From positions 1,302,001 through 1,366,000 of the forward strand of contig NZ_CP047952.1 in assembly GCF_014279875.1 (NCBI RefSeq): DNA of 64,000 nt, in the 5' to 3' direction. The notes beneath the pieces were generated by a model, which was not told where the DNA came from, searched no databases, and saw only the letters and a list, made by a program, of their open reading frames with translations. The stretch is from Synechococcus sp. MEDNS5. GTDB lineage: Bacteria; Cyanobacteriota; Cyanobacteriia; PCC-6307; Cyanobiaceae. Both the position numbers and the translations under genes were made by a program. Shown piece after piece: positions 10,217 to 64,000 of the stretch (the stretch's first letter is position 1; each line of letters starts with the position of its first letter).

Positions 10217-10259
10217 TTGATTTCGCTAGAACAGGGATCCTTGCAAGTCACGTTCGTCC

Positions 10260-10667
10260 ATGACATCAGAGCATGCCCTAACCCTTCTCTATGACGGTGG
10301 CTGCCCACTCTGTGTCAGAGAGGTGGACTTTCTCCGCCGCAAGGATCTACAGGAAGCGATGCAATTTGTGGATATCAATGCCCTGGATTACTGCTCTGAA
10401 TCATGGGGTGGAATCACCTACCGCCAAGCCATGGCAAGGATTCATGCCATCGATGCCGACGGAACAGTTCTCAAGGATGTGGCTGTGTTTCGAGCTGCTT
10501 ACCGCTTGATCGGTCTTGGCTGGATCTATGCGCCTACAACATGGCCTGTCGTCGGTCCAATCGTCGACTGGTTGTATTCACTTTGGGCGCGCTATCGACT
10601 GCCGATTACCAGAAGACCATCCTTGGACAAATTATGCGCTGAGCGATGTGAACGAACTGACACCTGA
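10260..10667 (+). CDS. DCC family thiol-disulfide oxidoreductase (DUF393)
   Basis: A 135-residue protein with the DCC motif at the expected place: LTLLYDGGCPLCVREVDFL carries D-G-x-C-P-x-C near residues 12-19. This thioredoxin-like fold is predicted to do thiol-disulfide chemistry, but substrates are unknown. A tryptophan-rich C-terminal half (GWIYAPTTWPVVGPIVDWLY) resembles other cyanobacterial members. It sits 43 bases after folP and convergent with chlH. Confidence 0.85.
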   Translation: MTSEHALTLLYDGGCPLCVREVDFLRRKDLQEAMQFVDINALDYCSESWGGITYRQAMARIHAIDADGTVLKDVAVFRAAYRLIGLGWIYAPTTWPVVGPIVDWLYSLWARYRLPITRRPSLDKLCAERCERTDT

Positions 10668-10696
10668 ATCCCAGCTAGTTCTGACAGCATTCAGGA

Positions 10697-49143: not shown

Positions 49144-49503
49144 ATGACCTCCACCCCAGTACCAACGCAGCCCTGCCGCCGGCTCGAACGTCTCCAGCGC
49201 CGGGAGCAGCACCGACCAATTCCTGCATCAATTCAAAAGCGCAACGGACTGGTGTTGCAACACCTGGGGCTGGCTCACCATGCCGCCAATCGACAGCTGC
49301 CCCGCGGCGGTGGCGAGTACGACGACCTCTGCCAGGAAGCCTGTCTCGGACTCGTCAAAAGTTTGGACCGCTTCGAGCCCTCCCGAGGCCACCAGGTGAG
49401 CAGCTATGCGATGCCAAAAGCAACGGGACAGATTCTTCATTACAGGCGTGATCGCTTGCACACCCTGAGGATTCCTTGGCGGATCAAGGAGTACCGGGTC
49501 TAA
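49144..49503 (+). pseudogene. Sigma-70 family sigma factor, truncated by element insertion
   Basis: The frame gives 119 residues. From about residue 30 it shows sigma region 1.2/2: QKRNGLVLQHLGLAHHAANR, YDDLCQEACLGLVKSLDRF and RGHQVSSYAMPKATGQILHY. These correspond to the -10 recognition and core-binding parts. After TLRIPWR the protein reads IKEYRV and stops. Regions 3 and 4 of a sigma factor, another 100-150 residues with the -35 HTH, are absent. The serine recombinase starts 34 bases later, so the simplest reading is that an integrated element cut the gene and the rest lies at the far junction outside this window. A naturally short protein is the alternative. Confidence 0.75.
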
Positions 49504-49515
49504 CGTAGCGCATAG
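49480..49515. other. Probable attL region of the integrated element
   Basis: This stretch covers the codons for RIPWRIKEYRV and the stop of the interrupted sigma gene. Host homology is expected to end here, since conserved sigma sequence continues past PWR in relatives. The exact crossover cannot be placed without the attR side or an empty site. Large serine recombinases leave a short (often 2-base) shared core. Confidence 0.45.
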
Positions 49516-49536
49516 TGATTGCAGCGGGTTGCGGTG

Positions 49537-50955: not shown

Positions 50956-50999
50956 ATTGCTAGTTGATCGGACCACTGGGGGTCGGTGTTTGGTGGGCT

Positions 51000-51028
51000 C
51001 GGTAGTGCTGGTGCCCCCGGCACTACCG
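51000..51028. terminator. Hairpin between convergent recombinase and phage operon
   Basis: CGGTAGTGC (51000-51008) pairs perfectly with GCACTACCG (51020-51028) around an 11-base loop. It lies between the recombinase stop (50955) and the stop of the last minus-strand phage gene (51090). A bidirectional terminator without a T-run is the likely role; a recombination-related site is an alternative. Confidence 0.55.
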
Positions 51029-51089
51029 GATCCGTCGATCGCGCCCTGATCACGCCCGCCGAAAGCCACTGACTTCCGTTCTGCAGAGA

Positions 51090-51368
51090 TCAACCCGATT
51101 CCTCGGGCAGCAATGCACACCTACAGGACCAATGGGCTGGGTGGGCGGCAAGCTCTGATTTCAGCAGCAACATTCCGTCCATTGGCCGGCACGTTGGACA
51201 GACCTTTTCGTCTTCTTTGGTGACCCAGCGATACGTTGATGCGTTCCAGGTATCCAGCTCGATTTGGCTGCTGATGCCCCACACGCCGGCTGCAATGGCT
51301 GCAGTGACCTGAGCCTCGATTTGCTTCCTGCCCTGGCCGAACAGGTTCTGCATCCAATTACTAAACAT
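51090..51368 (-). CDS. Phage head morphogenesis protein fragment (Mu-F/SPP1 gp7-like C-terminus)
   Basis: A 92-residue protein with the C-terminal signature of phage minor head proteins: the spaced YRWVTKEDEKVCPTCRPMDG followed by LAAHPAHWSCRCALLPEE, i.e. CxxC plus HxxHxxCRC-like residues. Complete members are 250-400 residues and sit next to the portal gene. Here only the tail is present. It overlaps the 116-residue gene by 8 bases (GATGTTTAG). Confidence 0.75.
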   Translation of the reverse strand: MFSNWMQNLFGQGRKQIEAQVTAAIAAGVWGISSQIELDTWNASTYRWVTKEDEKVCPTCRPMDGMLLLKSELAAHPAHWSCRCALLPEESG

Positions 51369-51711
51369 CGGTCTTCCTCTCGAATTGATTGGCGATGTTC
51401 TCGGAATCGACCGTGCCGTATCTGAGCAATTCGGCTGGGGATTTCATTGGGGGGATCGTTCCACCGCCGATGGCCTGTGCACCCTCCGCGATGCGACGCT
51501 GATGGGTGAACATTGCGGCACCGATTGCATCGGCGAGCGTGTCGTTTAGCCCTGCCAGGGCAGCAGCGTATTCGGCTTTGCTGGCGTCATCAGGCAGGCT
51601 TTCCATCGTGCGGATGGCGGCTTCCATTTCTGGTCGAACCTGTGCAGCGATGTCCTTTTCGACGCCACGTAGGAATGATTCCTGTTGGTCGAGATATTCT
51701 TGTTCAGTCAT
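51361..51711 (-). CDS. Phage-element hypothetical protein
   Basis: A 116-residue, acidic, helical protein (MTEQEYLDQQESFLRGVEKD, MEAAIRTMESLPDDASKAEY, LNDTLADAIGAAMFTHQRRI). Since minor head proteins have a helical N-terminal domain and the next gene encodes only their C-terminal signature, the two could be halves of one protein split into coupled frames; this is inference. The ATG at 51711 is chosen over GTG at 51720. Confidence 0.6.
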   Translation of the reverse strand: MTEQEYLDQQESFLRGVEKDIAAQVRPEMEAAIRTMESLPDDASKAEYAAALAGLNDTLADAIGAAMFTHQRRIAEGAQAIGGGTIPPMKSPAELLRYGTVDSENIANQFERKTDV

Positions 51712-51964
51712 CCAACTCACCTTTCTTGGGACGTCCCATCCTGATCAGTTGGGGCGGTGGGGTTTTTCCGTCGATTAATACTTTCACCGCTGATGAGATT
51801 GCAGTTGCTCGATGCTTCCATTCCCGGCAACTACTACCTGGGAACTTTTTCTGTTCCACCTCCATGGCTAGGGAATGAAGTGATGCTGTGAGCGATGCGT
51901 ATCTGCGACTGAACTCCTGTAAAGAATTTTGAGTGAAATACGCCGTCGGTGATCGTCCACTCAT
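51704..51964 (-). CDS. Phage-element hypothetical protein
   Basis: An 86-residue protein (MSGRSPTAYFTQNSLQEFSR, YASLTASLHSLAMEVEQKKF, REWKHRATAISSAVKVLIDG). It is basic and helical. The ATG at 51964 overlaps the previous stop by ATGA, and its own stop overlaps the next gene by 8 bases. No family was recognised. Confidence 0.55.
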   Translation of the reverse strand: MSGRSPTAYFTQNSLQEFSRRYASLTASLHSLAMEVEQKKFPGSSCREWKHRATAISSAVKVLIDGKTPPPQLIRMGRPKKGELDD

Positions 51965-52587
51965 GCCCTGGCCTCCCATTCCTTGATTATTTTGCCTGCT
52001 TTTTTAAGGAGGGCGCTGTTCTCGGATGCTGCTTGTTTCAGCATTCGAATCTCGTGATCTGCTTCTGCAATTTTGTTGCGTAGGGCTTTCATCTCACTGG
52101 AGTAAGAATTAAATGCGTTATTCACTATCTTCTGGTTCGCTGCAATTAAGTCTGTCGTCTTTTTTCTTTCCTTCTCTGCTGATTTGGCGAAAGATTGGGC
52201 TTGCTCTTGGAGTGCCTGATTATGGGATGTTTGAGAGCGGGCTTGCTCTTCGAGTTTTTTGAGGTCTTGGCTGATATTCCAACTGGATTGCATGGCTCGA
52301 GCCGTCGATGAGATGGCCTCTGCTGCCCTGCTGACATCGGGCTCGGATAGACGATCGTGGAGTGCTGCGAGTTGCTCTCGCATCTCGCCCAGTTCATCCA
52401 CATCCTCAACTCGTTCGGCGACCTCCGCTTCCAGTTCCTGTCCCTGTGGCTCGTAAGCATCGATTTCAGGTTCCTTGAGGTTTACTTCGATCCAGCTGGT
52501 GGCTTGGTACAGATGCAAATCATCTGGAATATCAACCCACTGATTCTTTAGGTGGGGAACAACATCGCCGACGTATTTAACTCTCAT
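51961..52587 (-). CDS. Phage-element coiled-coil protein
   Basis: A 208-residue protein. Residues 1-40 form a small beta domain (MRVKYVGDVVPHLKNQWVDI), and the rest is a long charged coiled coil (ELGEMREQLAALHDRLSEPD, LKKLEEQARSQTSHNQALQE, IAEADHEIRMLKQAASENSA). A structural or scaffold role is possible. The ATG shares a base with the stop of the preceding gene (TGATG). Confidence 0.6.
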   Translation of the reverse strand: MRVKYVGDVVPHLKNQWVDIPDDLHLYQATSWIEVNLKEPEIDAYEPQGQELEAEVAERVEDVDELGEMREQLAALHDRLSEPDVSRAAEAISSTARAMQSSWNISQDLKKLEEQARSQTSHNQALQEQAQSFAKSAEKERKKTTDLIAANQKIVNNAFNSYSSEMKALRNKIAEADHEIRMLKQAASENSALLKKAGKIIKEWEARA

Positions 52588-53147
52588 CAGCGAACCCGGT
52601 TTGCACGGACATCGCCCTGGTGCTGGCGGAGCAATTGCGCACGGCGCAGACGCATATTTTCCTCGGCTTGGGCCATGGCCATCCCTTTCAACATGCTGGC
52701 TTCACGAGCTTTCCGTTGCTCGGCTTCCATCTGCTTGAGACGCATCTCATTCATTTCTGGCTGCTGTTGTCTGGCCGCTGCTTCCTGAAGTTGTGCAGCT
52801 GCCTCTGGTGCTAACTGCTGCAATTTCATTTGGTCGGTGAGATTTCCACCATTAGCAAATGGGTTGCTATCAAACAATCGTTGTGCTTCTGCTTTGCGTG
52901 CTGCTTCGGCTTGCTGCTCATCAGTTGGGCGAACTGAATCCCACTTGCCGGCAAGAACATCAGCTTTTAGCCCTGCGTTGCAAGTTCCATCCAAGATCGA
53001 GACCAGCTCTGGGTCAGCAAGCCTAATTTGAAATGATTCAGTGACAAACTGGTCTGCAAATCCACCGAAACCTTCATCGGGCATGGGGCGTTCACTAACG
53101 GCAGACCAGCGCCTAAGCACGCTGTCACAAGTTGAATACCAAGCCAT
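52587..53147 (-). CDS. Phage-element hypothetical protein, Gln/Glu-rich C-terminus
   Basis: A 186-residue protein. The N-terminal ~75 residues look globular (DEGFGGFADQFVTESFQIRL, ELVSILDGTCNAGLKADVLA). The remainder is a charged, Gln/Glu/Arg-rich helix (QLAPEAAAQLQEAAARQQQP). No family was recognised. It starts 41 bases after the 57-residue gene, the only real gap in this operon, where an AT-rich TATAAT box is present. Confidence 0.6.
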   Translation of the reverse strand: MAWYSTCDSVLRRWSAVSERPMPDEGFGGFADQFVTESFQIRLADPELVSILDGTCNAGLKADVLAGKWDSVRPTDEQQAEAARKAEAQRLFDSNPFANGGNLTDQMKLQQLAPEAAAQLQEAAARQQQPEMNEMRLKQMEAEQRKAREASMLKGMAMAQAEENMRLRRAQLLRQHQGDVRANRVR

Positions 53148-53174
53148 GAAACTAAATCTTTTGCTGTCTCAATT

Positions 53175-53180
53175 ATTATA
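53175..53180 (-). promoter_or_regulatory. Possible -10 box upstream of the 186-residue gene
   Basis: The minus strand reads TATAAT here, 28 bases before the ATG at 53147 and inside an AT-rich stretch. No convincing -35 hexamer lies 16-18 bases further upstream, so this is a weak call. Confidence 0.25.
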
Positions 53181-53188
53181 AGCTTTGT

Positions 53189-53362
53189 TTATACATTGCT
53201 ACTGTAGCCAGCATCAATTAATCGCTGCCCGAGCCGTCGAGGGATAAAGCAAATGAGAATCCAACTAACAGCGTTCACAAACTCCGGGTCTCTCCAGGCC
53301 TCTGGCGGTGGATCCATCTCATCCAAGTAAGCCAACCACTCCGAGCAGGTGCCGCGTTCCAT
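53189..53362 (-). CDS. Small phage-element protein (57 aa) following the tape measure
   Basis: The minus strand from ATG at 53362 gives 57 residues (MERGTCSEWLAYLDEMDPPP, EFVNAVSWILICFIPRRLG, QRLIDAGYSSNV). The ATG shares its A with the TGA of the tape-measure gene, so it is translationally coupled to it. Small proteins coupled to the tape measure are often tail-assembly factors, but here it follows rather than precedes it, so that role is only a suggestion. Confidence 0.6.
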   Translation of the reverse strand: MERGTCSEWLAYLDEMDPPPEAWRDPEFVNAVSWILICFIPRRLGQRLIDAGYSSNV

Positions 53363-55983
53363 CAGCGAAGGCCCAATCGGCTGCGCTGGCTGCGACTGTT
53401 CTTCAGACTGTTCATTGATTTGGTGAAGCCACCTGCAGCACCACGCTTGGCCCCACGCTCTTCAGCTTCACGCGCCAAGGCAACACCTTGATCGACGGTC
53501 AGGTATTCAACGGAGTTGATGACGGTCGTTTCAATATGGATCGGGCCGCTCTGCCCACCAGCAGCACCGCCGCTGATGCTGCTTCCATCAGCACCTGCAG
53601 CTCGACCACCGCCGTTGCTCGGGCTGTATCGCGCCATCGCATCGGACATCGGCACGATTGTCGTCCGACCGCCACTTGAAAGCGCCAGCTCTGGACCTTC
53701 CTCGCCCACAATCGCTGGCCCTGTGCTGGGCAGCACGCCGCCATCAGCAAAACGGGGAACTTTCCCAAAATTCCCACTGAGGATTGAGAACAGACCAACG
53801 CCATCCTTGCCGCCCAGGGCACTAACAGCGCCCGTCACAGCATTCAGGATCAGTGCTTTGCCGATTGCCTGCAAAATGTCGCTGGCAAGACTCTTCATTG
53901 CTTCACCCAGTCGGTCCGTCTCGGTGACTGCTAATCCGATCGCGTCAACAATGCCGGTTTCGATGGTGTTGCCGACGCTTTGAATCAGCTGGTTGTAACG
54001 CTCGGTTTCGGCGTTGAGTTCCCGTTGTGCCTTTACCTGTTCTGCAAGATCGAATGCCTCGTTGAAGGGGACCCCCTTGTTCAGCACCAGATCCTCAACC
54101 TGCGCAGCTAAATCGGCATCGCCGCCAAACTTGCGCTCGTTTTGAAGGCTCCGCAGCTGGTCTCTAAGGCCCTGCGTTGGATCTCCCCCGATACGACTGG
54201 CACCTGCGATGGTGCGCTCGAAGCCCGCAATCTGAAGCAGAAGGTTGCGCTGGTCCTTCAGCTGTGAGGTGCGGTCCTTTTCAATCTGGGCAAGCTTTTG
54301 GCCAACACCGATTCGGACGTTATCGATGTCCAGCAGCGCTTTGGTTTCTAGTTGAGCGCGGACTCTTGCGTCTGCTTCGTTCTCCAGCTGGCCGAACAAC
54401 CTGTTTCGGATGTTGAGTTCGTCTCTGATGCCCTGCAGTCGGGCAGCAAGCGCATCGTTCCCGGCAAGTTCTGCACGTGCCAGGTCAGCAGCCAGTCGAT
54501 TCAGTTCTCGCTGGGTGAACACTGCCTGTTCTGCAGCACGGAGCCGTTTCTCTGCGTCTGCTGCCCTTTTGACTGCATCGGGGTCGGGTTTTTGCTTGTA
54601 TTGCTCGGTTTTTGTTTTGGGGACTGTCGGCGCTGGTGGTCCGATGAATCCATCCTGTGCAAGGAGCGGTTGAAGGAGTCGCTGCAGTTCTCGAATCCGT
54701 TCGTTTGATGCCTCCAGACGTCTTTCGAGTGCTCGAACCTGTGGCCCGCTTTGGTCCGTTGGAGCAACTTCGGCCAGACGCTTTTCGATGTTGGTTTTCA
54801 GGCCCTGCTCGATCTTCAACTGGCCTTGGAGCGCACCACGCTGAAGGTCTTGGATTGCCTCTGCACCCTTTGTCAGACCCTTGACGATTTCTGTGCCTAG
54901 GTCTTGGAAAGTCGCGCCGATCGACTTGGTCAGCGGTCCCAGGGCCAGCTTCAAGTTGGTGAGGGATTGCTTCAGTCGTGCCCCGGCTTCATCGGGACCG
55001 TCGGCAATCACTTTTGCGTTTTCGCCGAACTTATCCAGCTCGCCCTGGGTGAAGGTGACGAAGTCGGCCACCGTGACCTTGCCGTCCTTAAGTCTCTTAT
55101 CCAACTCTGCGGTGCTGATCTTCAGAGACTCGGCAAAGCGTCCAAACGCACCAGGCAATCGGTCGCCAATCTGTCCGCGAAGTTCCTCGGCTTGAACCTT
55201 GCCTTTCGAGAGGATCTGGATCGCTGCGTTCAGAGTGCCGTTGAGTTTTTCTTGGTCGCCGCCCAGTGCCTTGTTGCTGGCACTTAGGCCACGAATGACC
55301 GTGTCGATGTCTTTGAAGCTCAGACCAACAGAGTCGGCGGCTGCGGTGATCTTGGTGATGTTGCCGATCGCTTCATTCAGCGGAACGTTGAAGTCTTCGC
55401 TCACTTCACGGGCCAGCTGCAGCGACTTATCGAAATTCGAGCCAGCAACACCCCGAAGAGCTGTTTCCAGTTTCCCGACTTCAGCTGCGGTGATTGAGGA
55501 TTCTTTGCCTAGTTCACCCAAAGCGTTGGCAGCCTTCAGCGTCCCTGCGACGGCGGCAGCAACGATTGCACCCTTTGGCCCTGCGATTAACGCACCAGCA
55601 GCACCGGCCTGCAGGAAGTCCTGGCCTGGGACCGTTGCGAAGGCAGCACCAGCGCCAGCAGCTTTGCCGAGTCCAGCTCCACCGGCTCTGGAGTTCTTGA
55701 CACGCTGTTGTTCAAGCCTGCTGATCTGCTGCAGTTCGCGTTTCTGTAGGGCCAGCTCAGTTCGCTGCAGCCGCAGGTCGGTAATGCGCTTTTTTGCCCT
55801 GGTGGCTTGTTCGGCGCTGACGCGTGTTAATGCTCTGCGTTCACGGACGATTTGTTTATCGACGCTCAGAATATCCTTGGTTGTCTCCTCAATTTTCTGC
55901 AGATTGCGATCTACTTTTTTAATTTGCCGCTCTGCAGCGGTGGAATTTACCTTAAGGAGAATATCGGCGTTGAAATTTGCCAC
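53362..55983 (-). CDS. Phage tail tape-measure protein
   Basis: An 873-residue protein with the features of tape measures: an N-terminal coiled coil (IKKVDRNLQKIEETTKDILS), a Gly/Ala-rich hydrophobic region (residues ~105-155), the TMP_3-type domain at about 160-330 (KVQAEELRGQIGDRLPGAFG, DKRLKDGKVTVADF), a long coiled coil to ~650, a hydrophobic segment near 700, and the C-terminal FADGGVLPSTGPAIVGEEGP that recurs in this family. The start is GTG at 55983, with an in-frame stop just upstream. Tape measures set tail length and help DNA pass the cell envelope. No other tail gene is visible nearby. Confidence 0.92.
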   Translation of the reverse strand: MANFNADILLKVNSTAAERQIKKVDRNLQKIEETTKDILSVDKQIVRERRALTRVSAEQATRAKKRITDLRLQRTELALQKRELQQISRLEQQRVKNSRAGGAGLGKAAGAGAAFATVPGQDFLQAGAAGALIAGPKGAIVAAAVAGTLKAANALGELGKESSITAAEVGKLETALRGVAGSNFDKSLQLAREVSEDFNVPLNEAIGNITKITAAADSVGLSFKDIDTVIRGLSASNKALGGDQEKLNGTLNAAIQILSKGKVQAEELRGQIGDRLPGAFGRFAESLKISTAELDKRLKDGKVTVADFVTFTQGELDKFGENAKVIADGPDEAGARLKQSLTNLKLALGPLTKSIGATFQDLGTEIVKGLTKGAEAIQDLQRGALQGQLKIEQGLKTNIEKRLAEVAPTDQSGPQVRALERRLEASNERIRELQRLLQPLLAQDGFIGPPAPTVPKTKTEQYKQKPDPDAVKRAADAEKRLRAAEQAVFTQRELNRLAADLARAELAGNDALAARLQGIRDELNIRNRLFGQLENEADARVRAQLETKALLDIDNVRIGVGQKLAQIEKDRTSQLKDQRNLLLQIAGFERTIAGASRIGGDPTQGLRDQLRSLQNERKFGGDADLAAQVEDLVLNKGVPFNEAFDLAEQVKAQRELNAETERYNQLIQSVGNTIETGIVDAIGLAVTETDRLGEAMKSLASDILQAIGKALILNAVTGAVSALGGKDGVGLFSILSGNFGKVPRFADGGVLPSTGPAIVGEEGPELALSSGGRTTIVPMSDAMARYSPSNGGGRAAGADGSSISGGAAGGQSGPIHIETTVINSVEYLTVDQGVALAREAEERGAKRGAAGGFTKSMNSLKNSRSQRSRLGLR

Positions 55984-56128
55984 GATCGACCACTAAATGG
56001 GCTTATTAGTGCCATTTTAGCGGGCATTTTTTATGGCTCTATTGTGCTATTTCCCACAGTTAGGAGGTGGTCCACCGTCCGCTGATGGGCAGCAGTCGTG
56101 CGCTTGGTGGCTTAATCAGTTCTTAAAC

Positions 56129-57679
56129 TCACCACACGCGGATGCCGCTTTGGCCTGCTTGGCCGCTGTACCGCTGGTCGGCAGTGGCCATCAACAGGTA
56201 ACGGACGGCATCCAGGGTGTGGTCGGCATTGAGCTGCAGGTCGTCCTGTTTGCTGGTGTCGTGTTGCGCCAGTGGGGCGGTGGCCCAGAACGATTCCATT
56301 CGTTCGGTGGCATACAGGCCAGCAAGTTCCGTTCCAGCGTTGGCCATCATTGACGACATCAACGCCCAGCCGGTGGCCCTGCTTCCTTTGGGGCCGGCAG
56401 CGAATTTGCAGCCGTAGCGTCCCAGCTGATGGCCGATGCTGCCGTCCATTCCGCCGGTTGCGGCACCGATCTGCGCATCGGCGATGCGGTGGAGCTGGGG
56501 GATCGCATTCAGCACCATGCCGTTGCGTTCCAGCAGATGTTCGATGTGGTGCGCGAGGGATTGCACCGTCAACGTTGCGTCGCCTAGTTCCCAGCGGCGG
56601 GTGCCGTCTTTTTCGCGAAGACAGCTGTAATACTCATCGAGCAAAATCACTGATCGTGGGGCGATCACACGCCCGTCAGGCAGGTTGATCGGGCTGCGGG
56701 TCCGGTAGGCCAGGACCACCGACGATGGGGCTCTCACGCCGAAATCCAGGCCGATCCAGAGGTCTTTGGTGCTGAAGTCTTTTAGGTGGCGGATTTGGTC
56801 GCCGATCCAGGGCACCTTCGAGCGTTGTTCGCTCAGCGCATGGCCGAAGAAGCTGGCGGGGGTAGCGCTCCAGTCACCCCAAACTTCAGCGAGGATTTTG
56901 GCCGGGTCGTTGTTGGCCGATGCCTTCAGGGTTGCGACGTAGCTTTCGACGTCTAAGAAGCTGTTGTCGTGGACCGTTGAGTGGCAGACCACAAAGCTGT
57001 GGTTGAACAGCTCGTTGTGGAAGGGTTGCCATGGGGTGGCGCGGCTGATTACGTTCTCGAAAATCCACAGTGATCCGAGGTTGCCGGGGTTGGCTGTCAT
57101 GAGCAGCCGTGGCTTGATATTGGGGTCTGGTGAGCGGAGCGAGCTGCAGAGTCGCAGGATCGGACCAGGCTCACTGATCATCGCGCCTTCATCGATCGCA
57201 CAGTGCGTTAAATCCTCACCCTGGAATCGGGCGAAGGCATTTTCGTCCTTTAGGTAGTGGAGAAATAACCTGCCGCCGTTCGCAAACTCGAAGGTCTTTT
57301 GGCCTACTAAATAGCGCGTTCCAGCAAGTTGGGGGATTTGGTTGCAAAATTCTTCGATTAATTGCTGCAGTTTCTTTAGGCCGGCGAGATCGGTTCGGAG
57401 GAGCGCTCCACGGAAGGATTTGCCGAATCTGAGTGCATCACGCACCAGCAGCAGGGCCAGCGTCCACGACTTACCACCCCCGCGGCCCCCCGCCATCAAC
57501 AGCCAGTGATCGTCTGGCACTGAAATCGCCATTCGCTGGTGGTCCAGCAGTTCCGGTAGCCCTGTCTCGACCTTGACGTTGGCGGGTGGTTTGTTCTTGT
57601 TGGCCTTCAGGCGCTTGTCGTCAGCCTTTGGCGGTTGGTTCGGTTTGCGGCGGTATCGCGTTCCAGTTGCTTCGGTCAC
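56129..57679 (-). CDS. Phage terminase large subunit
   Basis: The packaging motor. The 516-residue protein has Walker A at residues 64-71 (GGRGGGKS), Walker B with Glu at about 163-164 (THCAIDEGAM), the C-motif LLMTANPGN near 193-201, and the RNase H-like nuclease with Asp 312 in LWIGLDFGVRAPS and a late acidic motif DHTLDAVRYLLM. The start is GTG at 57679. The usual next genes, portal and head protein, are missing: the tape measure follows after a 145-base gap. A probable small subunit lies 2.6 kb upstream. Confidence 0.93.
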   Translation of the reverse strand: MTEATGTRYRRKPNQPPKADDKRLKANKNKPPANVKVETGLPELLDHQRMAISVPDDHWLLMAGGRGGGKSWTLALLLVRDALRFGKSFRGALLRTDLAGLKKLQQLIEEFCNQIPQLAGTRYLVGQKTFEFANGGRLFLHYLKDENAFARFQGEDLTHCAIDEGAMISEPGPILRLCSSLRSPDPNIKPRLLMTANPGNLGSLWIFENVISRATPWQPFHNELFNHSFVVCHSTVHDNSFLDVESYVATLKASANNDPAKILAEVWGDWSATPASFFGHALSEQRSKVPWIGDQIRHLKDFSTKDLWIGLDFGVRAPSSVVLAYRTRSPINLPDGRVIAPRSVILLDEYYSCLREKDGTRRWELGDATLTVQSLAHHIEHLLERNGMVLNAIPQLHRIADAQIGAATGGMDGSIGHQLGRYGCKFAAGPKGSRATGWALMSSMMANAGTELAGLYATERMESFWATAPLAQHDTSKQDDLQLNADHTLDAVRYLLMATADQRYSGQAGQSGIRVW

Positions 57680-57785
57680 AGTCCTGCTGCATCACTTCAT
57701 TGTGGCAAGTAAATTCAGCAAAACGATTTGAGAAGTCGACGCGTTGCTTTAGTTCGCATGCTGATGCCACGCTTCAGCTAAGGAC

Positions 57786-59384
57786 TTAGCCAACTCCTGT
57801 TGATGAACTCGCAAAAGCATTTGCATCTACTTTTTGAAGACGCTTTTGCTCCAGGAACCTGAGGGGCTGATTTGTATCGGCGCGCTCAGAGACGCTCTGC
57901 CTGTATTGCTCAGCCTCCGCGATGCGCGTCCATCGAATTTCTGCTGTGACTCCGATTTCTTCCGCAGCAGCTTCGGCTTCGCGAACCAATTCCTCCCAAG
58001 TGATGGTGAAGAACTCTCGTCTGAGGTTCACCAGATTTAGACGGCGTGCGCTGATTCGATTGTGAATCGCATTTTCCAAGCCCGGCGCATCCTCAGTGAA
58101 AATCATCGCGTGGATATCGAATGGGAAAGGAACTGAGGCATCTCCAAGCTCACGGACGCGGTCAGTCGGCTCAAGACGCCTAGTCATTCCAACCTTGAAG
58201 ACATTGTGGCCAAAGGAGCCGATATTGCTGATGACATACACGTGACCACTACGGGTCATCTGTGCGCGGCTGATAGCTCGCTCTCTGTTGTCTTCGGCTT
58301 CTTGGACACGACGCTCTAGCTCTCTGATCTTTTCGAGATACTCCTCACTTTGGTCATTAGCAGCAGCCTCTTCACGAGCTCTAGCCAATAACTGCTCGTA
58401 CTTCTCGGCCTCGCGCTCCGCAGCTTCTTTAGCCTCCTCTGCCTCTCGGCGAGCTTGTTCTTCTTCACGCTCTTGGCGCCTGAGTTCGATCTGCTCTTCC
58501 CGCTCAGCCTGCTTAGTCAAGGCGTTTTCGTGAACCAGGTAAGCCTCGTCAACCTTCAGCTCTGAAAGGCGACTATCCCATGGCATCTCAACACGAGTCC
58601 TTGCCTGCTTTTCATAGAACTTGAAGGCGCGCTCGATCTTGCCGAGAACAGTCGAGTCGTTGGAATGTTTAAGCATTGAGATTGCAGCATCACATTCACC
58701 GTTGAAGCCGCGTAGAAGAGCAGTCACTGTTTGACGAACGAAGGCAGCTCCTTGTGTGCGAGACCCTCCAACGGTCACTTCAGTCAATTTACATTCTTGG
58801 AGAAGCTGTTTGCCTAGAGCCTTTTGCTTCTCTCGGTTTTGTTTAAGTAAATCAGCGAGGCGCTTTGAATCAAGGCCCGGATAGCGACGGGCAGCAAAAC
58901 CCGCATCATCAAGGTCCAAAAGGTCTTCGACATCCTGATTTAAGTCATTAATTCGCTGACGAAGTCCTGCATTTTCATCCTGGAGTCCTTTCTTCTGGTT
59001 CTTCATATCTGCCACTTCATGCTGAAGCAGATCCAGATGCTCATCAGCAAGTCTGACCTTGTTATTGGCGGCAACTTTTGCTTGATCGATTTTATCGAGC
59101 TCTTCCTGAGCAAGCTTTCGTTGATGTTCTATCTTCTTCTGAACATCTTCCAATCCTTTTTGAGCAAGCCTTTGCCTGTATCGAGTTTCTTTTTCGACAT
59201 CAAGGATTGGTTTGAATTTTCTGCGTACTCCTGCATCAGCCAATAAAGCCGCGACTGCCGAGCCAGCGAAAAGACCAGATCCCCCTACAAACATTTCGAT
59301 TCTTTCTTGCTCTGGAGAACCCAGCGCTGCGATGGTTACTACAACACCGCCGACAGCACTAGCTAAGGAGATGAGTCTGAACAT
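57786..59384 (-). CDS. Membrane-anchored DUF4041/GIY-YIG nuclease, SNIPE-like anti-phage protein
   Basis: A 532-residue protein in four parts. (1) Two hydrophobic segments at residues 4-21 (LISLASAVGGVVVTIAAL) and ~31-50 (FVGGSGLFAGSAVAALLADA). (2) A coiled coil, ~65-180. (3) A DUF4041 region at ~150-320 with AAFVRQTVTALLRGFNGECD and LGKIERAFKFYEKQARTRVE. (4) A charged coiled coil and a GIY-YIG domain at ~378-460: SGHVYVISNIGSFGHNVFKV, GMTRRL, DRVRELGDASVPFPF and the acidic RREFFTITWEEL. This order (anchor, DUF4041, GIY-YIG of the MUG113/T5orf172 type) is that of SNIPE, a defence nuclease reported to cut phage DNA during entry. The function here is inferred from architecture only. It lies between the terminase genes. 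Confidence 0.8.
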   Translation of the reverse strand: MFRLISLASAVGGVVVTIAALGSPEQERIEMFVGGSGLFAGSAVAALLADAGVRRKFKPILDVEKETRYRQRLAQKGLEDVQKKIEHQRKLAQEELDKIDQAKVAANNKVRLADEHLDLLQHEVADMKNQKKGLQDENAGLRQRINDLNQDVEDLLDLDDAGFAARRYPGLDSKRLADLLKQNREKQKALGKQLLQECKLTEVTVGGSRTQGAAFVRQTVTALLRGFNGECDAAISMLKHSNDSTVLGKIERAFKFYEKQARTRVEMPWDSRLSELKVDEAYLVHENALTKQAEREEQIELRRQEREEEQARREAEEAKEAAEREAEKYEQLLARAREEAAANDQSEEYLEKIRELERRVQEAEDNRERAISRAQMTRSGHVYVISNIGSFGHNVFKVGMTRRLEPTDRVRELGDASVPFPFDIHAMIFTEDAPGLENAIHNRISARRLNLVNLRREFFTITWEELVREAEAAAEEIGVTAEIRWTRIAEAEQYRQSVSERADTNQPLRFLEQKRLQKVDANAFASSSTGVG

Positions 59385-59432
59385 GCACGCTGAATAGCTA
59401 ATAGCATTTTCGCATCAAGATGCTTTTGGCAT

Positions 59433-59450
59433 ATCCCCCAACTGGGGGAT
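59433..59450 (-). terminator. Hairpin directly after the resolvase gene
   Basis: ATCCCCC (59433-59439) pairs with GGGGGAT (59444-59450) around AACT, a perfect 7-bp stem that abuts the resolvase stop. On the minus strand no long T-run follows, so termination or attenuation is likely but not sure. It would separate the resolvase from the SNIPE-like gene. Confidence 0.6.
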
Positions 59451-60014
59451 TTAGGCGGCGTCGAGGATGCGGCGCACCTTGCTGATGCTGATGTTCAACG
59501 CTTTGGCGATTGCGCCGTAGCTCATTTTTTGATCGCGGAACTGCTTCACCGTGGCGGCCAACTCCGGTGTCCAGGTGCGCTTGCGGCCGAATTTCACTCC
59601 AGCGTCTTGAGCCCTGCGGCGGCCTTCATCAGTGCGCTCCAGGATCAGTTCGCGCTCAATCTCGGCAGCGGCGGCCAGGATGCCCACCACCAATTTCGCC
59701 ATCTTGCCCAGGCCCTTGGTGTCAACACGGCCGTCGAGGGTACGGACGTGGATGTCGTCATCCAGAAGCCCTGCGACTCGTGACACACAGTCCTCCATGG
59801 AGCGTCCCAGGCGGTCGAGCTTGGCCACCACCAGCACATCACCAGACGAACAGGCTGCAATGGCGTTCTGCAGCTCCACACGCTGATCAAACGGTGCTGC
59901 GCCGGAGATGTGTTCGCTGAAAATTTGATCACATTGCGCTCCAGCCAATGCGTCGAGCTGGGCCTGCGTGTCTTGCTTGGTGGTGGAACAGCGGGCGTAT
60001 CCAATAAGCGTCAT
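59451..60014 (-). CDS. Serine resolvase/invertase
   Basis: A 187-residue recombinase of the resolvase/invertase type. The N-terminus MTLIGYARCSTTKQDTQAQL has the nucleophile serine at residue 10, and DVLVVAKLDRLGRSMEDCVS contains the conserved arginines. A long E-helix follows (AAAAEIERELILERTDEGRR), then a C-terminal HTH (MSYGAIAKALNISISKVRRI). Enzymes of this kind resolve or invert DNA at short sites. It shares a cassette with the SNIPE-like gene. Confidence 0.93.
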   Translation of the reverse strand: MTLIGYARCSTTKQDTQAQLDALAGAQCDQIFSEHISGAAPFDQRVELQNAIAACSSGDVLVVAKLDRLGRSMEDCVSRVAGLLDDDIHVRTLDGRVDTKGLGKMAKLVVGILAAAAEIERELILERTDEGRRRAQDAGVKFGRKRTWTPELAATVKQFRDQKMSYGAIAKALNISISKVRRILDAA

Positions 60015-60320
60015 GGCGGGTTAGCACAGTAGAAAACGGAATTCAGACCCCCAAAAAATTGGGAGGGGTTCTGGGTGTTGGCGAGAACTCGTTGGCATGC
60101 CCCCTTCGCTCAGATCGCAACCCTGCCCCCCGTCGAGGTGGGGTGGTGGGTCGCTCCAGCCCTGTGGCTGAGTCAGTGGAGCGGGGTTAGCTCGTTGGGT
60201 GTGTCGGAACTTTGCCAATAATAGCATTTCAGCGCGTCGGATGTCACGACATTCGGCACGAAAGCAGAGCAACCGTGGCGCAATGGATTTGGTGGTGTCG
60301 GAAGTTGGTGCCGAAATGCC
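60015..60320. other. Noncoding stretch between resolvase and small terminase genes
   Basis: 306 bases without a convincing gene. A minus-strand frame of 83 codons spans most of it but has no family resemblance and lies under a promoter-like motif. The only clear signal is the promoter described next. The GC-rich left half holds CCCCC/GGGG runs (60115-60140) that could fold, but no defined structure is claimed. Confidence 0.6.
60218..60247 (-). promoter_or_regulatory. Sigma-70-like promoter reading toward the resolvase
   Basis: On the minus strand GTGACA (60242-60247) and TATTAT (60218-60223) are separated by 18 bases; each differs from consensus by one base. Transcription from here would give about 197 bases of leader before the resolvase ATG at 60014. 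This is a pattern match only. Confidence 0.4.
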
Positions 60321-60935
60321 TCAGTTGCGGAAGGGGTAGGGACGTGCCGTCTTCTTGGCCTTGGGCTCATCGACCTCCATCACGCCGGGGGTCGTGACAG
60401 CCGAGCCCCAGTCGTCGGTGCCCAGGTCTTCGGCTTCAAGCTCCACGTCGGGCAGCTCTTGCGCTTCGGATGGTGGCAATGCCTTAGCGGCCACCATCTC
60501 GGCGTAGCTTCCAGCATCCAATGGCTTGAACAGATCGCCAACTGCCTCGGTGGTCACGGTGATGCTGCCCTGGTGATTGTGGGCATGGAGACTGATGCCA
60601 CCGGCAACGCCATAAATGCGCGCCAGTGAATCCAACTGCTTGCCTGCGGTTTCTAATGCCCTGGTGCCTGCACCTTTCTTGTAATCCTGTAGCGCAAAGT
60701 TGAACAGCATGTTGTGCTTTGCCGCCAATTCTCCGCGAATAGTTTCAAAATCTAATTCATAGGTATCTTGAAACATCTCTTTTGCCGCGAGTGAATCTTC
60801 CCAGCAAATCTTGCGGCTTAATCCTGTTACTTCCTGAATGCGAGTAATTGTTGCACCTTCCGCCACCAAAGGTGCGACGACATTTGTGATGCGATCTCGG
60901 CGAGATTTGCGGAGTTTCTCTACTTTAATCGCCAT
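60321..60935 (-). CDS. Probable phage terminase small subunit
   Basis: A 204-residue protein with an N-terminal helix-turn-helix-like part (RDRITNVVAPLVAEGATITR, then IQEVTGLSRKICWEDSLAAK), a helical middle (LAAKHNMLFNFALQDYKKG, ALETAGKQLDSLARIYGVAG) and an acidic, variable C-terminus. This is the layout of many terminase small subunits, which bind the packaging-start site. Family membership is inferred from layout and from the neighbourhood of the large subunit, with a 2.6-kb cassette between. A perfect palindrome lies 9 bases before its ATG. Confidence 0.6.
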   Translation of the reverse strand: MAIKVEKLRKSRRDRITNVVAPLVAEGATITRIQEVTGLSRKICWEDSLAAKEMFQDTYELDFETIRGELAAKHNMLFNFALQDYKKGAGTRALETAGKQLDSLARIYGVAGGISLHAHNHQGSITVTTEAVGDLFKPLDAGSYAEMVAAKALPPSEAQELPDVELEAEDLGTDDWGSAVTTPGVMEVDEPKAKKTARPYPFRN

Positions 60936-60943
60936 TTTGTCGG

Positions 60944-60960
60944 TTTAAGTATTACTTAAA
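60944..60960. promoter_or_regulatory. Perfect 17-bp palindrome upstream of the small-terminase gene
   Basis: TTTAAGTA (60944-60951), a central T, and TACTTAAA (60953-60960). It ends 9 bases before the ATG at 60935, over the expected ribosome-binding and promoter area. A dimeric repressor operator is the natural reading. It is too AT-rich for a terminator. Confidence 0.5.
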
Positions 60961-61052
60961 GCCAGACTAGCGGGTTTTAATCAACATCCCACCATTTAGC
61001 CCTGCCTGCTCTCATCGAGCTGCTCACCTCATCAACACCGATCGCTGCGATC

Positions 61053-61082
61053 ACCGACCGACCGACCGCGACCGACCGACCG
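61053..61082. repeat. ACCG tetranucleotide repeat
   Basis: Four ACCG units (61053-61068), then CG, then three more (61071-61082). It lies in the noncoding control region. Such tracts can change length by slippage. Confidence 0.85.
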
Positions 61083-61244
61083 CCCCACCCCCAGCCCTGC
61101 GTCTTGGTGATTCTCATTTTGAGACAATAATGAGACGCCCTGTCTCTCTACTTATTCCCTCCCTCCTATAGGGGGGTGTTGTTGTAGGGAAAGTTTCTTT
61201 GAAATCCACTGCTACAACAACCATCTCAGCGATTAGATCAAATC

Positions 61245-61396
61245 TTCCCGGCGGGAACCTTTAGCCGAGATCCATTGCGCTGCAGTGAGATTGCCCTGCA
61301 TCTTCCCGCAAATCTCCGGGAAGCGGGAAGGGAAACAATCAATGAAAAAGCCCTCCCCGACTGGTATCTGACCAGTGGGATGGGCAAATCTTCCCG
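61245..61396. repeat. Cluster of six TTCCCG/CGGGAA half-sites
   Basis: TTCCCG occurs at 61245, 61303 and 61391, and its complement CGGGAA at 61252, 61317 and 61324. The first two form TTCCCG-G-CGGGAA, a 13-bp palindrome; the next pair is spaced by 8 bases. Three of the direct copies share a longer ATCTTCCCG. Six copies in 152 bases is far more than chance. They lie in the last noncoding bases before the primase-helicase stop, so they could be iterons, repressor operators or a terminase site. Confidence 0.6.
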
Positions 61397-61426
61397 AGAA
61401 ATGGGCACGCCTATAGGGGAAACCCC

Positions 61427-64000
61427 TCAGCGGTTCGAGCGCAGCCAATACGGGTTCACCTTGAAGGTGCCCTGCTTTCCCTTCACCCGCTGAAGCTTGG
61501 GTGTCTTGCCACGGATCAGATCGCTGCAGTTGTTCTGCACCGTCTTGCGGCTCAACATGAAGCGCTTGCCCCGCAGGGCCTCCACCAGTTCATCGGTGGT
61601 GGCTGTCGGTCGGCCCTGGTCCCACCACTCCACCATCTGGTTGACGATGGCGGTGCGCATGTCACCCACAACCTCAGCCCCAGGGCACAGGGCTAGGCGG
61701 CCGTCTTCAGCCACCTTGTAGGAGAAGCCACGCTCATCAGCTTTGCGGCTTTTGTGGACGGTCAGCAGGCGTTGGCTTGCCATTGGCTTGCCGTCTTCAT
61801 CCTTGGGTTTCTCGCAACCAATCACCATTGATGGGATTTCCTCCCAGGCAGCAGCACCACCAGCCCTGCCTGGCCTGGTGCCGTCGTGAGCTACCACCAG
61901 CACGGTGACGAACGGACAGACGCACTCTTTTAGGAAGGTCATAAATTCCGTCACGGTGGCGTTGTCGGTGTAATCGCAACCACCCTTCGCCGTGATGGCT
62001 TTGGCGCTGTCCATCACCACCACAGCACCCTTGTTGGCCTTGGCCCACTCGAACAGCTCGATGCGGCCACGAATCCCGCAACCCCAAGCCTCCTGCTGCT
62101 CCTCCTGCGAGTAGCACCACAGCTCGAACAGATCGGTGGAGGGGTCAAACAGTGGATCGTTGTCCACGTCAAAGCCCATATCCTGCAGCTCCTCCTTTAG
62201 GGGATCGCCACCGGAGTCAGAAGCAATGAACAGCACCTTGGTGGGGTTGAGGTTCGCGGGACGATCCAACAAGCCTTGGCCCTGCATCCCCTGCACAGAA
62301 ATCTCCAGGGCTAGGCGTGTTTTGCCCGATCCCCGCATCCCCCACACAAGCGTGATGTCGTTGGATGGCAAGAAGCCAGGCAGCTTCCATTCAGTCCCTG
62401 CGATGCTGCGGAAACTGACGCCCCGACGCTTCGTCTTCTGGTTGGGCTTGAACCCGATGGCCCGCTTCTGCAGCAACTTGAACAGGCGGATTTCAACAGT
62501 CTGTTCGCGGCATCTGTAGTTCTCCCACAGCTCCGCCCTAATGCTCATCTCGCGGTCTTCGTCTTCCTTCACCACCGCGTCGTAAAGCTTTTCCATCAGG
62601 GTGGAGAAGGCAGGCCGCACAGCCTTCACCTCCTTCGCGACAACACGTTCGCGGTTGCGGCGATTGCCCTCAGAACAAAGCTCGCGGAGCTTCTCCAGGT
62701 TCTGCTGCGTAAAGGCCCTGGCCCTTGCGATCCACCCGCCAGGCGCCGGGTTCTTGATCCAGTGATCGGGATCCCACCCACAGTTGTCGATGGCGAATTG
62801 GCGCAACCGCAGCAGCAGCCCTGCTTGGCTCAGGTCGCCTTCACCGATGTGGTCTTGCTCCCAATGCGCGTCGTAAACCTGATCGACATCATCCAGATCG
62901 CCGTCGCTGTTGCTGCGCTCCAGAAACTGCTGCCATAGCTCCAGGGCTGAACCCTCGAACGGCTGGCCCAGCTCCTGCAGCTGCGCTTCGGCTGCCTGCA
63001 GCGTTTTGCTAAGTCGATTGGCAGCGACACGTCGACCACCCTGGCCTGGTTCCATGCCACTGGCGATTAACTCAACGGTGGTATTACCCAGGGCCAGCGA
63101 CAACGGCACCGGCTTCGACAACGGCAACTCCGGCAAATCAGCCCTGTCCACTTGGCAGTCCTCGTCATCGCGCCAGATCGTGCCGGTGCGATCCGAGCTG
63201 ACCTTCTCGGGCAACTCGCGGCACAGGGCCATCAGCGCGTCCAGCTCGAAGACGTTGCCCGTCTCCAAAACGATGGTGCTGCGCTCGCCGGTCTTGGGGT
63301 GGATGCCACCGGCCAATCGTGCAGGCTGGTGGGGGCTCACCATCGAGGTGTCGGCCTTGGCCTCGCCGGGCAGCACCTCGGTGATTGCCGCAGCCAATCG
63401 CTCCCGCGCAATCCGGCCCTGCTCCACCGACACCGGCGCAGCCAGCCGATACCAGACGTGCAGCGAATTGCGGCCGCTGTCCATCACCAGGGTGGGCTCG
63501 GGCAGCCCTGCCTGCTCCCAAAGCTTCCATTGATCGGCTTTGGCGATCGAATCGATTTCGTAGACCAGCAGGCTGCACTCGAAGATTTCCGCTGGCCGCC
63601 CTGGTCTGTCCAGCGTGCGGGTGCCGCCAGGGCAGCTGATGAATCCCAAGCTCCAGTCACCAGGCCGCTGCAGATCACGCTCCACCGCAGCCCAATCCAC
63701 CACGGCGGGCATCGAATCCCAGAGGTAGCGACCGTCTTGGCGCCGTCGGGGTGTGTAGTGGTTCGTCGCCCCGTAGGCGCAAGCGATCACCTTGGTGATG
63801 CCCAGGGCCTTCAGCATCCGGTCGGCCTGATCCGTGTCGATCAGCCCTGCTTCCTGCTCAGGGGAGGCAACCGCCTGAACCTCAATCGCAGAATGTTCGC
63901 GTTCAGCTTTGAAGGTCTTGAAAGTCTCGGCAAACGCCTCTTGAGCCGAGGAGTCCTCACAACGCGACTTCCAGACTTCATAAGCCTTTTCGTACGCTTC
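61427..64000 (-). CDS. Phage/plasmid primase-helicase (partial; open at window edge)
   Basis: 857 codons to the right edge, with no start seen there; an ATG at 63817 (MLKALGITKVIACAYG) is internal because the frame stays open for 61 more codons. The N-terminal half has a RepB-like primase block (EPTLVMDSGRNSLHVWYRLA). The C-terminal half has an AAA/RecA-type helicase: Walker A VWGMRGSGKTRLALEIS, Walker B VVVMDSAKAITAKGG, and the arginine-containing LLTVHKSRKADERG. The C-terminus has a winged-helix-like FMLSRKTVQNNCSDLIRG. It probably replicates the element. The end of the gene borders the repeat cluster. Confidence 0.85.
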   Translation of the reverse strand, partial: EAYEKAYEVWKSRCEDSSAQEAFAETFKTFKAEREHSAIEVQAVASPEQEAGLIDTDQADRMLKALGITKVIACAYGATNHYTPRRRQDGRYLWDSMPAVVDWAAVERDLQRPGDWSLGFISCPGGTRTLDRPGRPAEIFECSLLVYEIDSIAKADQWKLWEQAGLPEPTLVMDSGRNSLHVWYRLAAPVSVEQGRIARERLAAAITEVLPGEAKADTSMVSPHQPARLAGGIHPKTGERSTIVLETGNVFELDALMALCRELPEKVSSDRTGTIWRDDEDCQVDRADLPELPLSKPVPLSLALGNTTVELIASGMEPGQGGRRVAANRLSKTLQAAEAQLQELGQPFEGSALELWQQFLERSNSDGDLDDVDQVYDAHWEQDHIGEGDLSQAGLLLRLRQFAIDNCGWDPDHWIKNPAPGGWIARARAFTQQNLEKLRELCSEGNRRNRERVVAKEVKAVRPAFSTLMEKLYDAVVKEDEDREMSIRAELWENYRCREQTVEIRLFKLLQKRAIGFKPNQKTKRRGVSFRSIAGTEWKLPGFLPSNDITLVWGMRGSGKTRLALEISVQGMQGQGLLDRPANLNPTKVLFIASDSGGDPLKEELQDMGFDVDNDPLFDPSTDLFELWCYSQEEQQEAWGCGIRGRIELFEWAKANKGAVVVMDSAKAITAKGGCDYTDNATVTEFMTFLKECVCPFVTVLVVAHDGTRPGRAGGAAAWEEIPSMVIGCEKPKDEDGKPMASQRLLTVHKSRKADERGFSYKVAEDGRLALCPGAEVVGDMRTAIVNQMVEWWDQGRPTATTDELVEALRGKRFMLSRKTVQNNCSDLIRGKTPKLQRVKGKQGTFKVNPYWLRSNR

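What the first reader, a model, noticed from the sequence alone, without database searches (positions are those of the whole stretch)
57786..60014. A SNIPE-like membrane nuclease plus resolvase inserted between the two terminase genes
The 532-residue protein has the order membrane anchor, coiled coil, DUF4041, GIY-YIG. As I recall, this is the architecture of SNIPE, a defence nuclease that cuts phage DNA during injection and is linked with tape-measure proteins. Here it lies with its own resolvase, a promoter-like box and hairpins between TerS-like and TerL, which normally touch. The pattern suggests a movable defence cassette in an element. I am not aware of SNIPE being described in a cyanobacterium.
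Basis: partly seen in the sequence, partly recalled or inferred. Interest (0 to 1): 0.88.

Follow-up and report, generated by a model that had tools for sequence, protein, structure and literature searches.

The report
SNIPE defence nuclease in cyanobacterial satellite-like element
A cyanobacterium carries a small phage-like element in which a gene for a membrane-bound enzyme, of a kind known to cut virus DNA as it enters the cell, sits between two packaging genes that often touch, in a spot that related elements also use for extra genes.

Summary
The 532-residue protein is a full-length SNIPE (PD-Lambda-1) homologue: PADLOC E=2e-115, two hydrophobic N-terminal stretches, DUF4041, and a T5orf172/GIY-YIG domain whose E437 aligns with catalytic E414 of the E. 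coli protein. It lies with a small serine recombinase between a probable TerS gene and TerL. These sit in a 16.9-kb element with exact ends (2-bp core, empty site in two relatives) inside a sigma-70-type gene. The element has serine integrase, primase, TerL and tape-measure genes but no recognised major capsid, so it looks like a phage satellite. In 14 of 16 related elements the TerS-TerL pair is about 1.1 kb or more apart; 9 of 16 hold a recombinase there, 2 hold SNIPE. In outside relatives with a recognised TerS the gap exceeds 300 nt in 3 of 42. The interval looks like a cargo slot of this family. Not supported: the resolvase as SNIPE's own partner; promoter and hairpins (chance level). SNIPE is already widespread, including other cyanobacteria and two Synechococcus phages; the newer part is its site. 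Defence here is inferred, not shown.

The parts
49144..49490 (+). 5' part of a sigma-70-type gene split by the element (the 3' part is at about 66385-66897 in continued coordinates, L003:2385-2897, outside the window)
   Evidence: tblastn of the intact 286-aa gene of L126: 93% over residues 1-116 and 69% over 110-286; Sigma70_r2 E=5.5e-13 in L126
49489..49490 (.). attL core dinucleotide GA; attR GA is at 66385-66386, beyond the window
   Evidence: empty sites in L126 and L127 join 49490 to 66385 with 2-bp overlap
49519..50955 (+). large serine integrase, 478 aa
   Evidence: Resolvase E=1.6e-23, Recombinase 1.1e-6
51090..51368 (-). Mu F-like head-morphogenesis domain ORF (92 aa), overlapping the ORF before it by 8 nt
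   Evidence: Phage_Mu_F E=2.3e-7; phrog head morphogenesis E=1.8e-6; also the last part (630-708 of 717) of a family labelled portal protein, E=0.01
51361..53147 (-). four small overlapping or abutting ORFs of unknown function (119, 91, 208, 186 aa)
   Evidence: no PHROGs hits; the 208-aa one has a T6SS_VipA match below cut-off, E=0.0026
53362..55983 (-). tape measure protein, 873 aa
   Evidence: TMP_3 E=7.5e-23; phrog_2335 1.8e-27
56129..57679 (-). large terminase TerL, 516 aa
   Evidence: Terminase_3 E=8.5e-9; phrog_2 3.9e-21; G69, K70, D163, D312, D401, D490 invariant in an alignment of 13 sequences, own included
57786..59384 (-). SNIPE (PD-Lambda-1) homologue, 532 aa
59451..60014 (-). small serine recombinase (resolvase/invertase type), 187 aa
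   Evidence: Resolvase E=9.6e-33, HTH_7 3.9e-5; phrog_125 DNA invertase 1.9e-54
60321..60935 (-). TerS-like HTH protein, 204 aa (probable small terminase)
   Evidence: one of the five seeds of a local profile that also finds 11 non-seed relatives upstream of TerL (16 elements in all); weak by itself (phrog_645 E=0.0093)
61427..64000 (-). primase/helicase-like replication protein (AAA_25); continues to 64219 beyond the window
   Evidence: AAA_25 E=3.4e-12; phrog_36873 DNA helicase 7.1e-8; gene call 61427-64219
49489..64000 (.). the part of the 16.9-kb integrated element that lies in the window (it ends at 66384, L003:2384)

Best explanation
The gene encodes a SNIPE-type nuclease carried as cargo by a 16.9-kb satellite-like element that a large serine integrase placed in a sigma-factor gene. 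While the element is dormant, the protein would sit in the inner membrane by its N-terminal hydrophobic stretches, with the helical part, DUF4041 and GIY-YIG nuclease in the cytoplasm. It would cut the DNA of incoming phages as it is injected, probably by contact with their tape measure protein, so protecting cell and element from competing tailed phages. On induction or helper infection the element would excise, replicate with its own primase and use its own TerS/TerL to load its DNA into heads made by a helper phage. The TerS-TerL interval is a cargo slot of this element family and is often accompanied by a small recombinase. Shown: sequence homology, domain order, catalytic residue, element ends and empty site, gene set, and slot occupancy in relatives. 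Inferred: membrane position, cutting at injection, helper dependence, packaging, and any role of the recombinase in cargo exchange.
For: SNIPE: Pfam/PADLOC/PHROGs matches; alignment with the PD-lambda-1 protein of phage PhiR26_1 (500 aa, Glu at 414), 33% identity, with the GIY, YIG, Arg and Glu positions kept and E414 = window E437; SNIPE is the new name of PD-lambda-1, and E414A abolished its defence (PMC13190303, passages). Element: empty site in G569 and G554, 2-bp core GA. Of 13 element ORFs scanned with PHROGs none gave a major capsid match; the only portal-labelled match is the Mu F domain at E=0.01 to the tail end of one such family. Slot: gap 1,094 nt to 16 kb in 14 of 16 elements of 10 genomes, 0 nt in two; recombinase inside in 9 of 16 (6 tyrosine, 3 serine); outside relatives with a recognised TerS have gaps over 300 nt in 3 of 42. 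Other cargo there includes ArdA (G476b) and a T5orf172 nuclease (G474b). SNIPE lies in the same interval of a second element with a different integrase, G324a, 49-56% identity. SNIPE is not part of packaging: of the 12 family genomes with a full-length SNIPE ORF, 10 are not among the 16 TerL-positive genomes.
Against: No functional test. TerS identity rests on position and weak profiles. SNIPE sits in the slot in only 2 of 16 elements, and the two proteins are close relatives. The 16 elements are not independent (three from G324, two each from G440, G474, G476, G549; G440b and G440c are near-copies there). The outside control is the 42 loci where a TerS profile hit; 50 loci had none, so distant or divergent TerS genes could be missed. 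The satellite reading rests on missing capsid genes, which profiles can overlook; a decayed prophage is not excluded. The Mu F domain may be a broken gene. Repeats in 57500-61400 show no evident site for the recombinase.
Confidence: 0.66

Rival explanations
1. Homing endonuclease: a T5orf172/GIY-YIG gene beside terminase genes spreads by cutting terminase-region DNA of competing elements, not by defence at injection.
For: In a survey of 468 T5orf172 homing genes a terminase gene was the commonest neighbour (35% of neighbourhoods; PMC10448857, passages). A small T5orf172 gene lies in the same interval of G474b.
Against: The protein has SNIPE length and order with DUF4041 and hydrophobic N-terminal stretches; no DUF723 or DUF4397 match, two of the DNA-binding domains that the paper links to these homing genes (Pfam scan; the paper's own CapR profile could not be tested); most full-length relatives in the family lie in genomes without a TerL relative (10 of 12).
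Confidence: 0.1
2. Decayed prophage: the element is the remainder of a siphovirus-like prophage that lost head genes, and SNIPE is an ordinary moron.
For: Tape measure and Mu F-like genes are phage morphogenesis genes; the closest viral-contig TerL found, L151, lies with capsid and portal genes; phage ES18 carries SNIPE as a possible moron.
Against: Exact ends with an empty site; TerL residues intact; chain of open, overlapping genes; a similar short gene set recurs in other genomes with different integrases; no ORF of 60 aa or more in 19 regions, own included, matched the L151 capsid, L153 capsid or L151 portal proteins (phmmer, E up to 0.1).
Confidence: 0.2
3. SNIPE and the resolvase form one movable defence cassette that inserted as a unit.
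For: The two genes are adjacent, on the same strand, 66 nt apart.
Against: Relatives are separate: SNIPE without resolvase in G324a, resolvase without SNIPE in G324b; none of the 11 other resolvase loci examined has a SNIPE within 1.5 kb. No evident flanking repeats.
Confidence: 0.08

Closest known systems
SNIPE / PD-Lambda-1 (E. coli; PMC13190303, PMC9519451)
   Same: Domain order, DUF4041, GIY-YIG with the catalytic Glu, 33% identity to the PhiR26_1 PD-lambda-1 protein
   Different: Two hydrophobic N-terminal stretches rather than one (two predicted transmembrane segments in 7% of homologues in PMC13190303); in PhiR26_1 the gene lies among lambda-like early genes, here in a satellite-like element
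SNIPE genes of Synechococcus phages Yong-L1-251 and Ssp-JY37 (annotated 'hypothetical protein')
   Same: 555-aa SNIPE relatives in phages of cyanobacteria (Yong phrog_1847 E=6e-124)
   Different: Yong: 29% identity; lies after a replication gene, apart from an adjacent TerS-TerL pair
PICI and PICMI satellites with defence regions beside the primase
   Same: Small integrated element with integrase and primase and an accessory defence region next to the primase (PMC11364771 and PMC10803314, passages)
   Different: Here the place is between TerS and TerL, often with a recombinase, and TerL is present
Capsid-forming PICI (as described in PMC10690885, passages)
   Same: Carries both terminase subunits
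   Different: No major capsid hit in this element and no convincing portal
T5orf172 homing endonucleases near phage terminase genes (PMC10448857)
   Same: Same nuclease domain and neighbourhood
   Different: No DUF723/DUF4397; has DUF4041 and hydrophobic N-terminus

Membership tests
SNIPE / PD-Lambda-1 | C-terminal GIY-YIG (T5orf172) nuclease domain | tested here: met
   T5orf172 E=4e-14
SNIPE / PD-Lambda-1 | Catalytic Glu (E414 of E. coli SNIPE) | tested here: met
   E437 aligned with Glu 414 of the PhiR26_1 PD-lambda-1 protein
SNIPE / PD-Lambda-1 | Central DUF4041 | tested here: met
   DUF4041 E=1.4e-8, above cut-off
SNIPE / PD-Lambda-1 | N-terminal membrane anchor | tested here: inconclusive
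   Hydropathy shows two stretches, residues 1-25 and 29-53; no topology program or experiment; AlphaFold confidence low there
SNIPE / PD-Lambda-1 | Near whole-length match to a PD-Lambda-1 model | tested here: met
   PADLOC PDLC03976 E=2.1e-115 over residues 65-506
SNIPE / PD-Lambda-1 | Cuts phage DNA at injection and associates with tape measure proteins | not testable with these tools
   needs experiment
Phage satellite | Integrated element with integrase and defined att sites | tested here: met
Phage satellite | Own replication gene and packaging-redirection gene | tested here: inconclusive
   primase/helicase and TerL clear; TerS probable only
Phage satellite | Lacks genes for a complete virion | tested here: met
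   no major capsid hit among 13 element ORFs and only an E=0.01 portal-labelled match of the Mu F domain, within profile sensitivity
Phage satellite | Mobilised by a helper phage | not testable with these tools
   needs experiment
Capsid-forming PICI | Encodes major capsid and portal | tested here: not met
T5orf172 homing endonuclease | DUF723 or DUF4397 DNA-binding domain | tested here: not met
   none in the Pfam scan at E up to 0.01
T5orf172 homing endonuclease | CapR DNA-binding domain | not testable with these tools
   profile made by the authors of PMC10448857, not at hand

The most novel reading that the evidence does not exclude
Picocyanobacteria host a family of satellites that carry both terminase subunits but no capsid, and whose terminase pair is held apart by a recombinase-served cargo slot through which defence and counter-defence genes (SNIPE, T5orf172 nuclease, ArdA) are exchanged. 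In this member the weapon reads tape measure proteins of rival phages, and the element brings its own tape measure gene so that its particles pass through SNIPE-bearing cells unharmed.
Probability: 0.1. Interest if true: 0.85.

Novelty: new variant of a known kind. Interest (0 to 1): 0.52.

Why it matters
SNIPE is a recently explained defence that recognises the act of genome injection. Finding it in satellite-like elements of cyanobacteria gives a natural test of how broad tape-measure recognition is, and of how an element that may depend on phage tails avoids harm from a weapon aimed at them. The TerS-TerL slot gives a way to mine further defence genes from such genomes: one can read what lies between two recognisable packaging genes.

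Tried and rejected
Rejected: promoter and hairpin signals as support (chance level). Rejected: resolvase as SNIPE's partner. Not supported: a link between SNIPE and the tape measure gene by co-occurrence. Relatives of the tape measure were in 3 of 251 family genomes, own included; of the other two, G205 has no SNIPE match, and G533 has SNIPE on another contig. So a functional pair is speculation. Led nowhere: TerL as a single query in viral contigs (0 loci); the close SNIPE clade in viral contigs (0 loci); fold search in the PDB (no match at E<=0.001). The AlphaFold model was moderate (mean pLDDT 71, pTM 0.39); its GIY-YIG part gave matches to T5orf172 proteins.

Full report
Observation. The ORF at 57786-59384(-) encodes 532 residues. 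Pfam finds T5orf172 (E=4e-14), MUG113 (1.1e-13) and DUF4041 (1.4e-8), all above the curated cut-offs. PADLOC's two PD-Lambda-1 models match at E=2.1e-115 and 4.6e-113, together over residues 64-510, and phrog_1847 at 2.3e-113. SNIPE is the new name of PD-lambda-1 (PMC13190303, passages; also abstract and passages; PMC9519451, passages). I took as E. coli reference the protein annotated PD-lambda-1 in phage PhiR26_1 (500 residues), which has Glu at 414; I did not check that it is identical to the studied one. Identity to it is 33%; the GIY and YIG regions, the Arg and the Glu are kept, and its E414 aligns with E437 here. E414A abolished defence in the paper. The N-terminus has two hydrophobic stretches, residues 1-25 and 29-53, as in the close relatives G324a and G362, where the E. 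coli protein has one. The paper reports two transmembrane segments in 7% of homologues. The AlphaFold model has mean pLDDT 71 and pTM 0.39, with long helices before the nuclease domain and low confidence at the N-terminus; the nuclease part matches T5orf172 models of viruses, and no PDB match reached E<=0.001.

The element. Two genomes of the same genus, G569 and G554, align to the left flank up to 49490 and from 66385 on, sharing two bases, GA. The element is therefore 49489-66384 in coordinates that continue the window, about 16.9 kb; its last 2.4 kb lie beyond the window. Its integrase is of the large serine type. The empty site lies inside a 286-residue gene with Sigma70_r2 (E=5.5e-13) and a weak Sigma70_r4 match below cut-off; here the gene is cut after about residue 116. 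On the minus strand the element holds a primase/helicase, the TerS-like gene, the resolvase, SNIPE, TerL, a tape measure gene, four small ORFs and a Mu F-like domain, with the integrase on the other strand. Thirteen of its ORFs were scanned with PHROGs: none gave a major capsid match, and the only portal-labelled match is the Mu F domain against the last part of one such family, E=0.01. TerL keeps G69, K70, D163, D312, D401 and D490, which are invariant among 13 aligned sequences, own included; that these are ATPase and nuclease residues is recalled knowledge of the family.

The slot. TerL relatives occur in 16 of 251 family genomes at E<=0.001, at 26 places. I fetched the surroundings of 18 places, own included; the 8 left out were short, weak or held a stop. 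A profile from five TerS-like proteins found one in 16 of the 18; G288 and G440a had none. The five seeds, the window's protein among them, match by construction; G474a is the weakest hit (E=6e-5). The 16 elements come from 10 genomes. In 14 of 16 the TerS-like ORF and the TerL ORF are 1,094 nt to 16 kb apart; in two (G362b, G324c) they touch. Nine of the 16 intervals hold a small recombinase: six a tyrosine recombinase of one family (G539, G440b, G440c, G474a, G474b, G476b), three a serine recombinase (the window, G324b, G476a). Other contents include ArdA in G476b and a T5orf172 nuclease in G474b. A TerS profile hit upstream on the same strand in 43; one of these, L231, is Synechococcus sp. 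1G10 again and repeats the 3.3-kb gap. Of the other 42, three have gaps over 300 nt (517, 1101, 434) and 39 at most 212 nt. Fifty loci, L151 and the Synechococcus locus L240 among them, had no TerS hit. Several control loci are near-duplicates and six seeded the second profile, so neither set is fully independent.

SNIPE in the slot. Besides the window, G324 has an element with a tyrosine integrase in which SNIPE (56% identity over 125-501; 49% in the alignment) lies after the TerS-like gene and before TerL, which is 16 kb away from that gene. A third relative, G362, same genus, has the first 341 residues at 53-56% and no nuclease domain, near a tyrosine integrase. In the family search 25 of 251 genomes matched SNIPE at E<=0.001; of the 14 best loci read, 12 have a full-length ORF, one (G362) lacks the nuclease domain and one (G539) is a 174-residue fragment. 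The remaining matches are short, mostly of the nuclease domain. Ten of those 12 genomes (all but G000 and G324) are not among the TerL-positive genomes. In the phylum sample 48 of 386 genomes matched; 13 of them over about 390 or more of the 491 model positions by my count of the rows, three of those with a stop inside. So SNIPE is neither rare in the phylum nor a packaging component.

The resolvase. Its relatives are in 106 of 251 family genomes. I examined 12 of the 25 loci returned, own included, with 1.5 kb on each side: two (the window and G324b, 68% identity) are beside a TerS-like gene, and only the window's is beside SNIPE; weak TerS-profile hits inside two recombinase ORFs (L251, L254), which I put down to the shared helix-turn-helix, were not counted. 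A small serine recombinase near integrases is reported in other picocyanobacterial elements (PMC10187409, passages). I therefore read it as a common occupant, not as SNIPE's own.

Mechanism. The likely action, by homology, is that of SNIPE: a membrane-bound nuclease that cuts phage DNA during injection, probably guided by the tape measure protein (PMC13190303). Satellites with defence regions next to their primase are known (PMC11364771, PMC10803314; passages). The element resembles these, with the difference that TerL is present and the cargo lies between the terminase genes. Capsid-forming PICIs carry both subunits with capsid and portal (PMC10690885, passages), which I did not find here. 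The main rival for the gene is a homing endonuclease, since T5orf172 homing genes favour terminase neighbourhoods (35% of neighbourhoods in a survey of 468; PMC10448857, passages); DUF4041, length and hydrophobic N-terminus speak against it. The main rival for the element is a decayed prophage.

Tape measure. The element's tape measure protein matched 757 phage records, all under 60% identity and none over 80% of its length; the best-ranked is cyanophage KBS-S-2A (27.8% over 396-778). Terminase with a tape measure gene and no recognised capsid gene also appears in G205 and in viral contigs L156 and L160; of these only part of the ORFs was scanned with PHROGs and the contigs may be incomplete. 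SNIPE is thought to act on tape measure proteins, so an element with its own is suggestive, but the two do not co-occur in the other elements seen: G324 has SNIPE and no tape measure relative, G205 the reverse. Prophages with tail-sensing defences do have means against self-harm (Tha, PMC11087260, passages; Tai-positive phages, PMC11364771, passages), which makes the question worth testing.

Novelty. Three papers of the library hold 'DUF4041', and one holds both 'PD-Lambda-1' and 'cyanobacteri', on Leptospira (listing only). The main text of the SNIPE paper has no word beginning 'cyanobacter', though its trees by phylum, which I could not see, may include them. A search for satellites with tape measure, large terminase and hotspot listed nine papers; I read passages in three and saw none describing a TerS-TerL cargo slot. 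Other searches on satellites and cyanobacteria gave listings in which I saw no such report, most of them not opened. The protein is a new member of a known family; the slot in this satellite-like family is, as far as these searches go, a new variant of a known theme.

Noticed in passing
window 49144-49490 and L003:2385-2897; intact in L126:10686-11546 and L127:11024-11884: The element splits a sigma-70-type gene between region 2 and the region 4-like part, so excision would restore it; a regulatory switch is conceivable.
   Followed up: partly
L131 (G584) 6128-10732: In another genome of the genus the same sigma gene is interrupted after about the same residue (116) by some 4.6 kb in which no ORF was recognised as an integrase, so the site may be an insertion hotspot.
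   Followed up: partly
L003:1491-2666 (-): An ORF at the right end of the element has a weak GIY-YIG match (E=0.0019, below the Pfam cut-off); a second nuclease may flank attR.
   Followed up: no
window 51090-51368 and 51361-51720: The Mu F-like domain is part of one 252-aa ORF in G440b/c but follows a separate overlapping ORF here: split gene, coupled genes or frameshift.
   Followed up: partly
L156, L160, L076 (G205): TerS/TerL with a tape measure gene and no recognised capsid gene recurs in other elements (ORFs only partly scanned), possibly a wider class of satellites that bring their own tape measure.
   Followed up: partly
L147 (phage ES18) 6836-8365: The SNIPE homologue of phage ES18 is marked as a possible moron and lies about 630 nt before the tape measure gene.
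   Followed up: no
L085 / L081 (G362): A SNIPE relative lacks the nuclease domain but keeps the hydrophobic N-terminus and the DUF4041 part: decay, or a form without nuclease.
   Followed up: partly
L151 (IMG/VR, 13 kb): The closest viral-contig TerL found (44%) lies in a contig with a major head protein and a portal on the opposite strand, a possible relative of a helper or ancestor.
   Followed up: partly
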